Positions 17,114-20,157 of a stretch of DNA of 64,000 bases are shown in pieces. Source of the DNA: Longimonas halophila. GTDB lineage: Bacteria; Bacteroidota; Rhodothermia; Rhodothermales; Salinibacteraceae. The translations under genes and the position numbers were made by a program. The notes beneath the pieces were generated by a model. That model did not search any database and was not told where the DNA came from. It was given only the letters and a program-made list of their open reading frames with translations. Location: the NCBI RefSeq assembly GCF_002554705.1, contig NZ_PDEP01000003.1, positions 1 through 64,000 of the forward strand, in the 5' to 3' direction. Numbering within the stretch: position 1 is the first letter of the stretch; every line of letters begins with the position of its first letter.

Positions 17114-17575
17114 GACGATAGACTTCAGCCAAAGAGGGTGCGGGTGAGCGTGGCGTTCCTGCCATTGCATCTACGTTGCACGAGCCCTACACGGGGGCAT
17201 GCTTGTACAATACGTCTCCTGCTTAGGTACTTAAGAGTACGCAGGCAGGCAATGGTTCGCACGCAATGGGTTAAATGGGTTATGAGCAATATACAGATTG
17301 GAACGGTACGGGCGCAATGCCGCATTTCCGAGTGCTGAACTGACGTAGCCTGTCTCCAGTGTAGCACGCCTCTTGCGCCTCCTACAGCGGACCTTTGCAA
17401 ACAACTACTTCGTATAGATTCATTAGCTGTTCCGTTACGCTACGGTATGATGCTACTTCATGTAGCCCGCACAGCTAACGGCGCAAACGTTTCCGCTGCA
17501 TCACTCTTTTGTGTTCTCGTTCTTTTATTCATTGCCTGTTGGACGCAGAGTAGCGCACGCCAGGCACAACAGCCA
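17114..17575. other. Divergent intergenic region
   Basis: 462 bases between the recombinase-like gene and the Omp85-type gene (which may start as early as 17447). It contains a near-palindrome GTACTTAAGAGTAC around 17225 but no clear promoter or RNA. Confidence 0.45.
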
Positions 17576-18778
17576 ATGTTGGGTATGATTGGGACTGGAA
17601 CCAGCACGTTGCGGCCGCGACATCAATGGCTGTTGCTGTGCGCCCTACTTTTCACTCTGCTGCTAAGCAGTATTCTCCCTTGCGGGGTTTATGCCACAGC
17701 GCACGACCGCCCCGTGGCCTCGTGGCTGACGGAGCCGCGTGACACAACCGAAACCAGTTTGTGGGACACGATTCCTCTTGCCGGTGCCGATACGGCATCG
17801 AACACCAGCTGGTACGCGCTTCCACTCATGTACTACACCCCTGAAACCAGCGTTGGCGGTGGGTTCTCGGCTGGTTACTTCTTTGGTAGCGACCCCGCGC
17901 GCATCTCCAGCGTCAAGTCCGACCTGTCTGCCACGCTGAACGGCGAATACGAGGTATCATTCGACTCTGAGTTGTATCTGAACGACGGTCGCTACCGTTT
18001 ATGGGCTCAGGTCAATGCCGCGCAAACGCCAACCTCCTTTTTTGGGGTAGGCCCTAACAGCAACACCCGTGAATCCTACACGCGACAGATGGTTGATGTG
18101 AAGATGCGGGGCGCACGACGCCTTACGCAGGCCTTGCATGTGGGCCTACGCATGCGTGTACGTCGTACCACCATTACATCGGTGGATGACGGGGGCCTGC
18201 TTGACCAGAATGCAGTGCCTGGTGCCCGCGGAAGCAGCGTGGTTGGCATTGGCCCTATTCTGTTTGTAGATACCCGCTCACGTACCTACTACCCGCGCCG
18301 TGGGCACTACGTCTCGCTGTATGCCCTGACCCATCCGTACGTGCACAACGCCCAGGGCACGTTTACACGGTTTGGGGCAGACATGCGGCGGTTTCTTCCT
18401 ATGGGCACAGACCAGGTGCTTGCCTTGCAGGCCTATGCCGAGGCCGTTACGGATATGCCACCGTTTGCGCTCCTGCCTAAGCTGGGAGGGTCGGCGCGCA
18501 TGCGGGGCTATCAGAATGCACGCTTCCGCGACCGCGTGACGGTAAGCGCACAGGCCGAGTGGCGCGCTCCAATATGGTGGCGCATTGATGGGGCCGTGTT
18601 TGCCAGCGTGGGCACCATCGCGCCACGCATAGCCGAGCTTGGCCATAGCGGACTGAAACCCGCAGGAGGCATTGGAATGCGGTACAAACTGAACGACTCG
18701 GGCGTACGCCTGCGCGCCGACTTTGCCGTTAGCCCCGACGGTACCGGACTATACTTGACGGGCTCCCCTCCGTTTTAG
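17576..18778 (+). CDS. Omp85/BamA-superfamily outer membrane protein
   Basis: About 400 residues from the ATG at 17576; an in-frame ATG at 17447 would add another hydrophobic stretch. After the signal peptide come roughly 16 beta strands of a surface-antigen (D15) type barrel. G-G-S-A-R-M-R-G-Y-Q-N-A-R-F-R-D corresponds to the loop-6 V/M-R-G-F/Y motif that sits inside the barrel. There is little room for POTRA domains, so it is a short barrel like those of patatin-associated or TamA-derived proteins. It probably inserts or transports a substrate at the outer membrane; the substrate is unknown. Confidence 0.82.
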   Translation: MLGMIGTGTSTLRPRHQWLLLCALLFTLLLSSILPCGVYATAHDRPVASWLTEPRDTTETSLWDTIPLAGADTASNTSWYALPLMYYTPETSVGGGFSAGYFFGSDPARISSVKSDLSATLNGEYEVSFDSELYLNDGRYRLWAQVNAAQTPTSFFGVGPNSNTRESYTRQMVDVKMRGARRLTQALHVGLRMRVRRTTITSVDDGGLLDQNAVPGARGSSVVGIGPILFVDTRSRTYYPRRGHYVSLYALTHPYVHNAQGTFTRFGADMRRFLPMGTDQVLALQAYAEAVTDMPPFALLPKLGGSARMRGYQNARFRDRVTVSAQAEWRAPIWWRIDGAVFASVGTIAPRIAELGHSGLKPAGGIGMRYKLNDSGVRLRADFAVSPDGTGLYLTGSPPF

Positions 18779-18865
18779 GATAGCACACGTTGTTTGGCCA
18801 ATCCCCTAACGGATTCACTCCGAACTGACACCTCAAACACTCCTCACACCTCTCAAACCCTAACT

Positions 18866-18895
18866 TTGTAACGATTGATGTTCTCACGTTATGAT
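18866..18895 (+). promoter_or_regulatory. Sigma-70-like promoter of a candidate small RNA
   Basis: TTGTAA (18866-18871) and TATGAT (18890-18895) are separated by 18 bases. No protein gene follows, but a strong terminator lies about 105 bases downstream of the -10 box. Confidence 0.45.
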
Positions 18896-18901
18896 CTCTA
18901 C

Positions 18902-19038
18902 CGAACGGGGTCATAATGGTGCGTTTCCAGATAGGCCGCACTTTGCGAGCACACACGCATCGCTCATACACACCGTTCGCCTCCGGTTCATTTCTCTAAG
19001 CGCCTGGTCTCTGGTGGGAGACCAGGCGCTTTCTTTGT
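18902..19038 (+). ncRNA. Candidate small RNA of about 135 nt
   Basis: The predicted start from the promoter at 18866-18895 is about 18902. Bases 18902-18908 can pair with 18973-18979 (7 bp), and the transcript would end at the 13-bp terminator hairpin (18999-19035). No RNA family is recognised and there is no convincing open frame. Promoter, internal pairing and terminator together make the case; each alone would be weak. Confidence 0.35.
18999..19035 (+). terminator. Strong intrinsic terminator
   Basis: A perfect 13-bp GC-rich stem (18999-19011 with 19018-19030) has a 6-base loop and is followed by TTCTTTG. It ends 257 bases after the Omp85-type gene, which is far for that gene and fits the candidate small RNA better. 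Confidence 0.7.
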
Positions 19039-19275
19039 ATGGGGCTGCTAAGGATGTGCGTTCTACACGCGGGCAGAAAAGGAGTCAAGTGACCCACACA
19101 GCAAAAGGTAGCGGTTCAACGCTACGTGATGGAGGCAATAGGCCAGTAGCCGGAGACGGGGAGCGCCGTCCGGTGTGGACGTCTCCGCATGGCTGACGGG
19201 AGCGAATGGGGGACCGTTCACCCCAGAAAAGATTCTTATCAGGGGAGTTATCATTTAACGTCTATCCACTACCCA
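19039..19275. other. Intergenic region without a recognisable gene
   Basis: Between the two terminators I looked for RNase P RNA, tmRNA and SRP RNA motifs on both strands and found none. Some local inverted repeats occur but no protein-like frame. Confidence 0.4.
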
Positions 19276-19415: not shown

Positions 19416-19418
19416 ATT

Positions 19419-19500
19419 CTAATTTGGATTTTTAGATTTTGGATTGTCGATTCTGTTTCTCAAATCCAAAATCCGCAATCTGAAATCCGCAATCCAAAAT
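19419..19500. repeat. AT-rich AATCC-type inverted and direct repeat between tRNA genes
   Basis: Low-GC DNA unlike its surroundings. The direct repeat AATCCGCAATC occurs at 19470-19480 and 19484-19494 (period 14), and the arms 19434-19453 and 19481-19500 are inverted copies (about 16 of 20 matches). If transcribed with the tRNAs it would fold into a long hairpin between them. Confidence 0.75.
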
Positions 19501-19752: not shown

Positions 19753-20157
19753 CTACCGATCCCACAGCACATGCATCGGCTCACGCATCACCAACCGCCC
19801 TTCCAGAAGCCGGGGGGCGTAGTTCATGAAACCATGTACGGTGTAGATTTCGGGTGGCGTACAGTTGTACAGCCACTTTCCTTGACGTACGCCCGTGCGG
19901 TCGTCGGTCGTAAGGAGCAGCGCCACGAGTCCAGTCGTGCCCGTCCCGCGAAAGCAGTCCACGGCCTCGCCATCGCCACCCATGGTGCCAGGAATGTAGC
20001 CATAGTCGAGCGGATACACCACGGTGGGATAGTCGGGGTGCGCACTGCGTGCTGGCCGGTCAATGATGAGCCCTCGTGCTGCAATGAGCGCCTCCCATGC
20101 CTCCCACCGTACCTGTTTGGCAACCAGCGATGTAAATGCGGTGTGGGGGGCAAGCAT
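19753..20157 (-). CDS. Short inorganic-pyrophosphatase-like protein
   Basis: 134 residues. Y-P-L-D-Y-G-Y-I-P-G-T with G-G-D-G-E-A-V-D corresponds to the core of soluble family I pyrophosphatases (Y-P-x-N-Y-G-Y-I and D-G-D-P-x-D), with the middle Asp replaced by Glu. Short proteins with D-G-E in this position exist in Firmicutes and are annotated as diphosphatases, so the change may be a family feature. The usual third Asp region (D-D-R-T-G) is present but altered. Activity on pyrophosphate is uncertain. The gene is upstream of the tRNA pair on the same strand. Confidence 0.7.
   Translation of the reverse strand: MLAPHTAFTSLVAKQVRWEAWEALIAARGLIIDRPARSAHPDYPTVVYPLDYGYIPGTMGGDGEAVDCFRGTGTTGLVALLLTTDDRTGVRQGKWLYNCTPPEIYTVHGFMNYAPRLLEGRLVMREPMHVLWDR

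What the first reader, a model, noticed from the sequence alone, without database searches (positions are those of the whole stretch)
18866..19038. Candidate orphan small RNA between the Omp85-type gene and the tRNAs
A sigma-70-like promoter (TTGTAA, 18 bases, TATGAT at 18890-18895) is followed within about 145 bases by a perfect 13-bp terminator (18999-19035). The predicted first bases (18902-18908) pair exactly with 18973-18979. The stretch has no credible reading frame. Promoter, 5' pairing and terminator are seen; that they form one transcript is inference.
Basis: partly seen in the sequence, partly recalled or inferred. Interest (0 to 1): 0.55.

Follow-up and report, generated by a model that had tools for sequence, protein, structure and literature searches.

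The report
Paired small-RNA genes, one promoter type
The stretch is very probably a real gene for a small non-coding RNA of about 135 bases, and a shorter sister gene with the same promoter boxes and the same end signal sits elsewhere in the genome and in one related species; this gives a little-studied bacterial group a candidate pair of regulatory RNAs.

Summary
The interpretation (a free-standing small RNA) is supported; one detail, the 7-bp helix, is not. A congeneric genome (G001) keeps the region in the same place (Omp85 gene - RNA - tRNA-Leu - tRNA-Lys). There the two promoter boxes are identical with unchanged spacing, 7 of 9 spacer bases between them changed, and the RNA body is 90% identical against 67% at four-fold sites of the adjacent Omp85 gene. 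A whole-genome search with the promoter block found a second locus in both genomes ("RNA-B", about 83 nt): the same two 11-base boxes, the core RGRGTCAT-N4-GTGC, the same terminator. In both genomes the gene upstream of RNA-B points away, so RNA-B is no gene's 3' tail. The four terminator stems pair in 60 of 60 cells, with one compensatory pair. Best reading: two sibling trans-acting sRNAs driven by one specialised promoter, in the style of streptococcal csRNAs or Bacteroides FopS. Only the layout is shown; expression, regulator, targets and function are inferred, and no target was found. No Rfam family matches; covariance model R1 hit 2 of 114 genomes of the order. New member of a known kind.

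The parts
18865..18875 (+). Promoter box 1, TTTGTAACGAT (contains most of the -35-like TTGTAA 18866-18871)
   Evidence: Identical in 4 of 4 sequences (RNA-A and RNA-B in two genomes)
18876..18884 (+). Spacer between the boxes: 9 bases in 4 of 4, sequence not conserved (1-4 of 9 identical in each pair of sequences)
18885..18895 (+). Promoter box 2, CACGTTATGAT (contains the -10-like TATGAT 18890-18895; CACGTTACGAT in RNA-B). Boxes 1 and 2 hold a direct repeat GTAACGAT / GTTAYGAT, 20 bp apart
   Evidence: 10-11 of 11 identical in every pair of sequences; the direct repeat is read from the sequence
18902..19036 (+). Predicted RNA-A, about 135 nt; the start is inferred from the -10 box (18900-18904), the end from the terminator
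   Evidence: Inferred; promoter and terminator conservation
18907..18914 (+). Shared core near the 5' end, RGRGTCAT (GGGGTCAT, GGGGTCAT, AGGGTCAT, GGAGTCAT in the four); anti-start-codon-like CAU; candidate seed, though partly paired in the predicted folds
   Evidence: folds
18906..18985 (+). Helix P1: 18906-18911 pairs with 18979-18985; one G-C to G.U change between species
   Evidence: structure derived from the same two sequences
18918..18942 (+). Helix P2: 18918-18923 with 18937-18942; one G-C to G.U change
18944..18959 (+). Helix P3: UGCG 18944-18947 with CGCA 18956-18959; UACG/CGUA in G001, a compensatory change
18986..18997 (+). Stretch before the terminator, unpaired in the A consensus fold, with UUCAU that is T[T/C]CAT in all four; second candidate pairing region (but this segment is paired in the B consensus fold)
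18998..19038 (+). Intrinsic terminator, 15-pair stem 18998-19031 and T-rich tail; 23 bases CGCCTGGTCTCTGGTGGGRGACC shared with RNA-B
17447..18778 (+). Upstream Omp85-superfamily gene (443 aa); the scan listed no + strand terminator between its stop and 18998
   Evidence: PF01103
19329..19577 (-). Convergent tRNA-Leu(GAG) and tRNA-Lys(UUU); the same order in G001

Best explanation
18866-19038 is a gene for a small RNA (RNA-A, about 135 nt) with its own promoter and intrinsic terminator. It is one of two sibling sRNA genes found in this genus; the other, RNA-B (about 83 nt), has the same promoter boxes, core and terminator without about 50 bases of A's middle. Shown by comparison: promoter, body and terminator are one unit, on the + strand, kept by selection. 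Inferred: a sigma-70-family holoenzyme, probably with a dedicated activator on the direct repeat GTAACGAT-N12-GTTAYGAT (or an alternative sigma factor), turns both genes on together. The RNAs then act in trans by short base pairing, most likely through the shared RGRGUCAU near the 5' end and/or the UUCAU stretch before the terminator, both of which could cover AUG start regions of target mRNAs and block translation. The Omp85 mRNA probably also ends at A's terminator.
For: Synteny and conservation in G001: RNA 18906-19037 114/126 identical (9 gap columns) against 154/230 at four-fold sites of Omp85, Fisher p = 3.6e-7. Boxes unchanged at fixed spacing with 2/9 of the spacer identical. A whole-genome pattern search found two loci in each of the two genomes and 0 hits of the reversed control pattern; expected by chance about 0.0003 per genome at the window's base composition, 0.0015 at equal bases. 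RNA-B has the same core and terminator. The gene upstream of RNA-B is divergent in both genomes, and is a different gene in each (ECF sigma factor in L101; a frame starting at 572 on the - strand in L102), so B has its own promoter. Terminator stem 60/60 cells paired over four sequences with one A-U/G-C compensatory pair. P3 compensatory change. In A the three other changed pairs (P1, P2, terminator) are all G.U on the + strand and would be A.C mismatches on the - strand. No frame keeps its sequence, and 3 of 4 sequences lack a stop before the terminator in the shared ATG frame.
Against: No expression data. Only two species and four sequences; R1 found nothing in the other 112 of 114 genomes of the order, though R1 lacks the terminator and also missed RNA-B. 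No target found: complements of the conserved 18973-18992 stretch occur only at the gene itself at up to 3 mismatches, and the 13-base core gave 17 and 9 hits in the two genomes against 11 and 12 for the control. Three hits fall at orthologous sites; all lie well inside long open frames of one strand or the other, not at starts. The candidate seeds are partly paired: RGRG of the core in the A fold, and the TCAT before the terminator in the B fold. Without its terminator the G001 copy of A folds no better than shuffles (z = +0.2 and +0.5). The sibling's -10 (TACGAT) is too weak for the sigma-70 scan. Outside boxes, core and terminator, A and B hardly align. The A and B structures were derived from the same pairs of sequences that they are counted on; on four sequences 90 of 500 shuffles reach the terminator's covariation score.
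Confidence: 0.55

Rival explanations
1. The stretch is only the 3' untranslated tail and terminator of the Omp85 mRNA, perhaps processed into a 3'-UTR RNA; the promoter is a chance match.
For: Omp85 lies upstream on the same strand, and the first + strand terminator listed after its stop is 18998-19031.
Against: Both boxes are conserved at fixed spacing with a changed spacer. The sibling with the same boxes, core and terminator has a divergent upstream gene in both genomes. 26 of 27 genomes of the family have a match to the Omp85 protein, but R1 finds the RNA in only 2 of the 27.
Confidence: 0.1
2. The RNA works by binding a protein (6S-like mimicry of a promoter, or titration of a regulator) rather than by pairing with mRNAs.
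For: Much of it is paired in the consensus folds, the candidate seeds partly included; no 6S RNA was detectable in 31 of 31 genomes of the group with RF00013, so a strongly diverged functional substitute cannot be excluded; no target sites were found.
Against: No Rfam family reaches its threshold, 6S included. It lacks the long interrupted hairpin recalled for 6S. R1 finds it in one genus only. The A and B folds before the terminator differ.
Confidence: 0.17
3. It is the mRNA of a very small protein starting at the ATG in or beside GGTCATG (window 18916, 27 codons).
For: All four sequences have an ATG within 3 bases of the same place; 27-codon frame with stop just before the terminator in the window; in RNA-B 4 of 5 substitutions in this frame fall on third positions (counted by eye).
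Against: 3 of 4 sequences have no stop before the terminator (none within the 50 codons printed); the frame breaks between the two A orthologues; the B frames diverge after the hairpin.
Confidence: 0.07
4. The inverted repeat TTATGATC-N12-GGTCATAA (18889-18916) is the functional object: an operator, or an RNA hairpin in a longer transcript (18887-18918).
For: 12-pair hairpin in the window, z = -4.3, and z = -2.3 in G001; 10 of 12 pairs kept in G001, one of them by a U-A to U.G change. G000 has 4 other places at 2 mismatches against 1 control hit; these were not looked at.
Against: Absent from both RNA-B copies. G001 has 2 other places, the same as its control, and every other place in both genomes needs 2 mismatches.
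Confidence: 0.06

Closest known systems
csRNAs of streptococci (CiaR-dependent sibling sRNAs; PMC3091779, found passages read, one of them from the abstract)
   Same: Several intergenic sRNAs that share a strong regulated promoter with a direct repeat and an intrinsic terminator; variable size (51-202 nt in that paper); CAU anti-start-codon segments in unpaired regions; candidates found there too by promoter plus terminator.
   Different: The box is different (TTTAAG-N5-TTTAAG against GTAACGAT-N12-GTTAYGAT), the phylum is different, no regulator is known here, and no anti-Shine-Dalgarno segment is shared by the four RNAs (read).
FopS / GibS sRNAs of Bacteroides thetaiotaomicron (PMC11697453 and PMC7366714, found passages read)
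   Same: Paralogous, mostly intergenic sRNAs in a related lineage described as lacking an obvious Hfq; conserved 5' segment. GibS has a conserved non-canonical promoter.
   Different: No Rfam family matches here at threshold; sequence relation to FopS itself was not tested. FopS has 14 members and known targets; here two loci per genome found and no known target.
6S RNA (RF00013)
   Same: Free-standing structured RNA of similar size class.
   Different: No match; no long interrupted hairpin (recalled feature); about 135 and 83 nt only; one genus.
Neisseria NgncR_162/163, OmrA/B and Qrr sibling sRNAs (recalled; named in a found passage of PMC11697453 and, for Neisseria, in the search listing)
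   Same: Small sets of co-regulated sibling sRNAs with a shared seed.
   Different: Different promoters, chaperones and hosts; no relation tested.

Membership tests
Intergenic, independently transcribed bacterial sRNA | Own promoter | tested here: met
   By conservation only: two 11-base boxes at fixed spacing in 4 of 4 sequences, spacer diverged; upstream gene of RNA-B divergent in both genomes; no start mapped
Intergenic, independently transcribed bacterial sRNA | Intrinsic terminator | tested here: met
   15-pair stem and T-rich tail, conserved with a compensatory change
Intergenic, independently transcribed bacterial sRNA | No protein-coding signal | tested here: met
   Substitutions spread 6/4/4 over codon positions 1/2/3 in the 101-codon frame, 18891-18956; no conserved stop
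Intergenic, independently transcribed bacterial sRNA | A stable transcript exists | not testable with these tools
   No RNA data for this organism on hand
Intergenic, independently transcribed bacterial sRNA | Base pairing with target mRNAs | tested here: inconclusive
   One candidate segment (18973-18992) searched in two genomes; hits at control level; RGRGUCAU and the UUCAU stretch were not searched
csRNA (CiaR-dependent) | Promoter repeat TTTAAG-N5-TTTAAG | tested here: not met
   Boxes are TTTGTAACGAT and CACGTTAYGAT
csRNA (CiaR-dependent) | Several siblings sharing promoter and terminator layout | tested here: met
   Two loci in each of two genomes
FopS/GibS | R1 seed sequence and RbpB binding | not tested
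   No FopS sequence was fetched or typed; the only Bacteroides sRNA family in the Rfam results was BTnc201, E 0.28, 18.9 bits against 105
6S RNA | Match to RF00013 / long interrupted hairpin | tested here: not met
   No match; fold differs from the recalled 6S fold

The most novel reading that the evidence does not exclude
The two boxes are the site of a dedicated regulator or alternative sigma factor whose main outputs, perhaps its only ones, are two sibling sRNAs: a small RNA-output regulon in Rhodothermales in which no Hfq was found, with A's extra middle domain giving the two RNAs different targets.
Probability: 0.35. Interest if true: 0.6.

Novelty: new member of a known kind. Interest (0 to 1): 0.45.

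Why it matters
Regulatory RNA seems hardly explored in the Rhodothermales: three full-text searches of the openly licensed library (15 papers listed, 1 paper, 0 papers) showed no title about sRNAs of this group. The one relevant paper, a halite metatranscriptome (PMC7002113, found passages read), names Salinibacter in an antisense RNA-gene pair. No Hfq was found in either genome. A conserved sibling pair with a precise shared promoter gives a concrete entry point: the boxes can be used to find the regulator, and the two RNAs to find targets and any chaperone.

Tried and rejected
Bacteroidota-type -7 element TAACTTTG at 18861-18868, overlapping box 1: its TA is CG in G001, so dropped. The Bacteroidota motif TAnnTTTG was counted upstream of 33 long frames of the window: 2 observed, 1 on the reverse strand, 0.9 in shuffles; TTG-N17-22-TAnnTTTG 1, reverse 1, shuffles 0.06; TTGNNN-N16-18-TANNNT 4, reverse 4, shuffles 2.7. 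This does not define the lineage's promoter. PMC3155529 (found passages) was read for Shine-Dalgarno use in this group and not used further.

Operator or hairpin reading of 18889-18916: absent in RNA-B, no clear family of copies (4 further places at 2 mismatches in G000 not examined).

Long ancestry: R1 (113 positions, no terminator) in 27 family genomes and 114 order genomes hit only G000 and G001. Ten stretches at Omp85 relatives of other genera were fetched (one of them only 1,534 bases); none of the 10 has tRNA-Leu or tRNA-Lys. 6S: 0 of 31. Target search: control level.

Calls that went wrong and count for nothing: one search aligned the wrong strand of L004; one search used a pattern one base too long and missed even the window; one search used a structure one column off (repeated correctly); one search used a poor pattern for a repeat end. 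One comparison inside one search was one base out of register (repeated correctly). Three of the 20 repeat copies had ends misplaced by the script.

Full report
What is there. The promoter-like hexamers, the exact 7-base complement and the strong terminator are at the stated places. The terminator is a 15-pair stem (14 Watson-Crick plus U.G), and is the only place in 64 kb with a perfect stem of 13 bp or more and a loop of 3-8; ten random windows of the same first-order composition had none. The rest of the predicted RNA is not unusually stable on its own (18902-18997, z = -1.3; the G001 copy z = +0.2). Neighbours: an Omp85-superfamily gene upstream on the same strand (PF01103) and tRNA-Leu(GAG) and tRNA-Lys on the other strand downstream. 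Rfam: at gathering score only the three tRNAs of the window, nothing credible at a lax threshold.

The organism. The closest named record is an uncultured Rhodothermaceae MAG contig (CAJXLX010000032.1), which has the same length as contig C32 of the same-genus genome G001 (30440 bases), so I treat them as one source. The lineage is therefore Rhodothermales-like; this rests on that record's title only.

Comparison with the one close relative. Of 41 genomes searched with the 551-base DNA, 2 (G000 itself and G001) matched. G001 keeps the order Omp85 (384/423 aa identical) - RNA - tRNA-Leu - tRNA-Lys. In ungapped register: 18865-18876 12/12 identical, 18877-18885 2/9, 18886-18897 12/12, 18898-18905 2/8, 18906-18956 43/51. 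From 18906 to 19037 114 of 126 aligned positions agree (9 gap columns), against 154 of 230 four-fold sites in Omp85, p = 3.6e-7; the stretch between the Omp85 stop and 18830 is at 28/42 with 17 gap columns. The boxes are thus under constraint while the spacer keeps its length and not its letters, which is what a promoter looks like.

The sibling. Searching both genomes with the promoter block (24 fixed bases, up to 3 mismatches) gave two loci in each, and none for the reversed control; the chance expectation is about 0.0003 per genome at the window's composition, 0.0015 at equal bases. The second locus (L101 4112 on, in G000; L102 888 on, in G001; 3 mismatches each to the window's block) has the two boxes of the consensus TTTGTAACGAT-N9-CACGTTAYGAT (written after all four were seen), a third and fourth spacer sequence of the same 9-base length, the core RGRGTCAT-N4-GTGC-NN-TTC, and the 23-base terminator sequence CGCCTGGTCTCTGGTGGGRGACC. 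RNA-B lacks about 50 bases of the middle of RNA-A. A scan of the 434,074 bases then held, at up to 5 (boxes) and 4 (terminator) mismatches, found only these two loci in the two genomes, some in several overlapping records. Nearby in L101: an ECF-type sigma factor and a FecR-domain gene, both on the - strand upstream, rpsU on the - strand (PF01165) and a Ham1-family gene on + further on. L102 has the Ham1-family gene too, but of the 887 bases held upstream of RNA-B most is a different - strand frame, starting at 572 and running off the contig (it looks to me like a solute symporter, untested); the ECF and FecR proteins have no tblastn match in L102 better than E = 1.9. In both genomes the gene before RNA-B points away, so the unit has its own promoter.

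Structure. Over the four sequences the terminator stem is paired in 60 of 60 cells, with one compensatory pair and three one-sided changes; slid controls give 40-58%. The shuffle control is weak here (90 of 500 reach the covariation score), as expected with four sequences. For the two A sequences RNAalifold gives P1 (18906-18911/18979-18985), P2 (18918-18923/18937-18942, with two inner pairs), P3 (18944-18947/18956-18959) and the terminator; P3 has a clean compensatory change, UGCG/CGCA to UACG/CGUA. The three other changed pairs are G.U on the + strand. This structure was derived from the same two sequences, so its 100% pairing is partly built in; the compensatory change is one event, and half of the shuffles (260 of 500) do as well. 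The B pair folds differently before the terminator, and there the TCAT segment is paired. A strong alternative hairpin at 18887-18918 in the window overlaps the -10 box and is missing in B.

Coding. In the 101-codon frame the substitutions of 18891-18956 fall 6/4/4 on codon positions 1/2/3; Omp85 for contrast has 799/846 identical at positions 1+2 and 303/423 at position 3. A shared ATG near GGTCATG has no stop before the terminator in 3 of 4.

How it probably works. Shown: two conserved units of promoter, short body and terminator. Inferred: co-expression from one regulated promoter type; action by base pairing of the shared RGRGUCAU or of the UUCAU stretch with start regions. The TTG-N21-TAYGAT geometry fits a housekeeping-type promoter with an 18-base spacer, but boxes of 11 nearly invariant bases exceed what such a promoter needs, and the direct repeat GTAACGAT / GTTAYGAT at a 20-bp period suggests a bound activator; an ECF-type reading (GTAAC ... 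CGTT) is possible with an unusually short spacer (motif knowledge recalled). No target could be shown, and the seeds are partly paired in the predicted folds. Hfq was not found in the two genomes, while the same search rang in 5 of 14 control genomes.

Against the known. It works like sibling sRNA sets such as the csRNAs (PMC3091779) and the Bacteroides FopS family (PMC11697453) or GibS (PMC7366714); of these papers I read found passages. It is not a csRNA (different box) and matches no Rfam family; membership in FopS was not tested. Full-text searches for Salinibacter or Rhodothermales with small-RNA terms listed no paper with a title on such RNAs in this group; the library holds only openly licensed papers.

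Noticed in passing
window 19107-19273: A 167-bp dispersed repeat just downstream of the RNA gene: ends GGTAG...CTACC, imperfect terminal inverted repeats of about 24 bp read by eye. 15 places in G000 (this one included) and 14 in G001, where only 15 candidates per genome were scored, and one more in L004. 8-bp target duplications with 0 or 1 mismatch in 13 of 20 aligned copies, and an apparently empty site in G001. A MITE-like non-autonomous element; its transposase was not looked for.
   Followed up: partly
L101 2110-3856: ECF sigma factor and FecR-type gene pair directly upstream of, and divergent from, RNA-B in G000; in G001 a different divergent gene stands there.
   Followed up: partly
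window 19416-19500: A/T-rich intergenic stretch between tRNA-Leu and tRNA-Lys made of imperfect repeats of the type AATCCGCAATCCAAAAT in both orientations, variable in length between the two species.
   Followed up: no
search over 31 genomes: No 6S RNA detectable with RF00013 in 31 genomes of this order (E up to 0.1), though 5 of 14 control genomes rang. Either absent or too diverged for the model.
   Followed up: no
window 19753-20157: A 134-aa frame with a weak, below-cutoff inorganic pyrophosphatase match (22.1 bits against 23.5) on the - strand behind the tRNAs.
   Followed up: no
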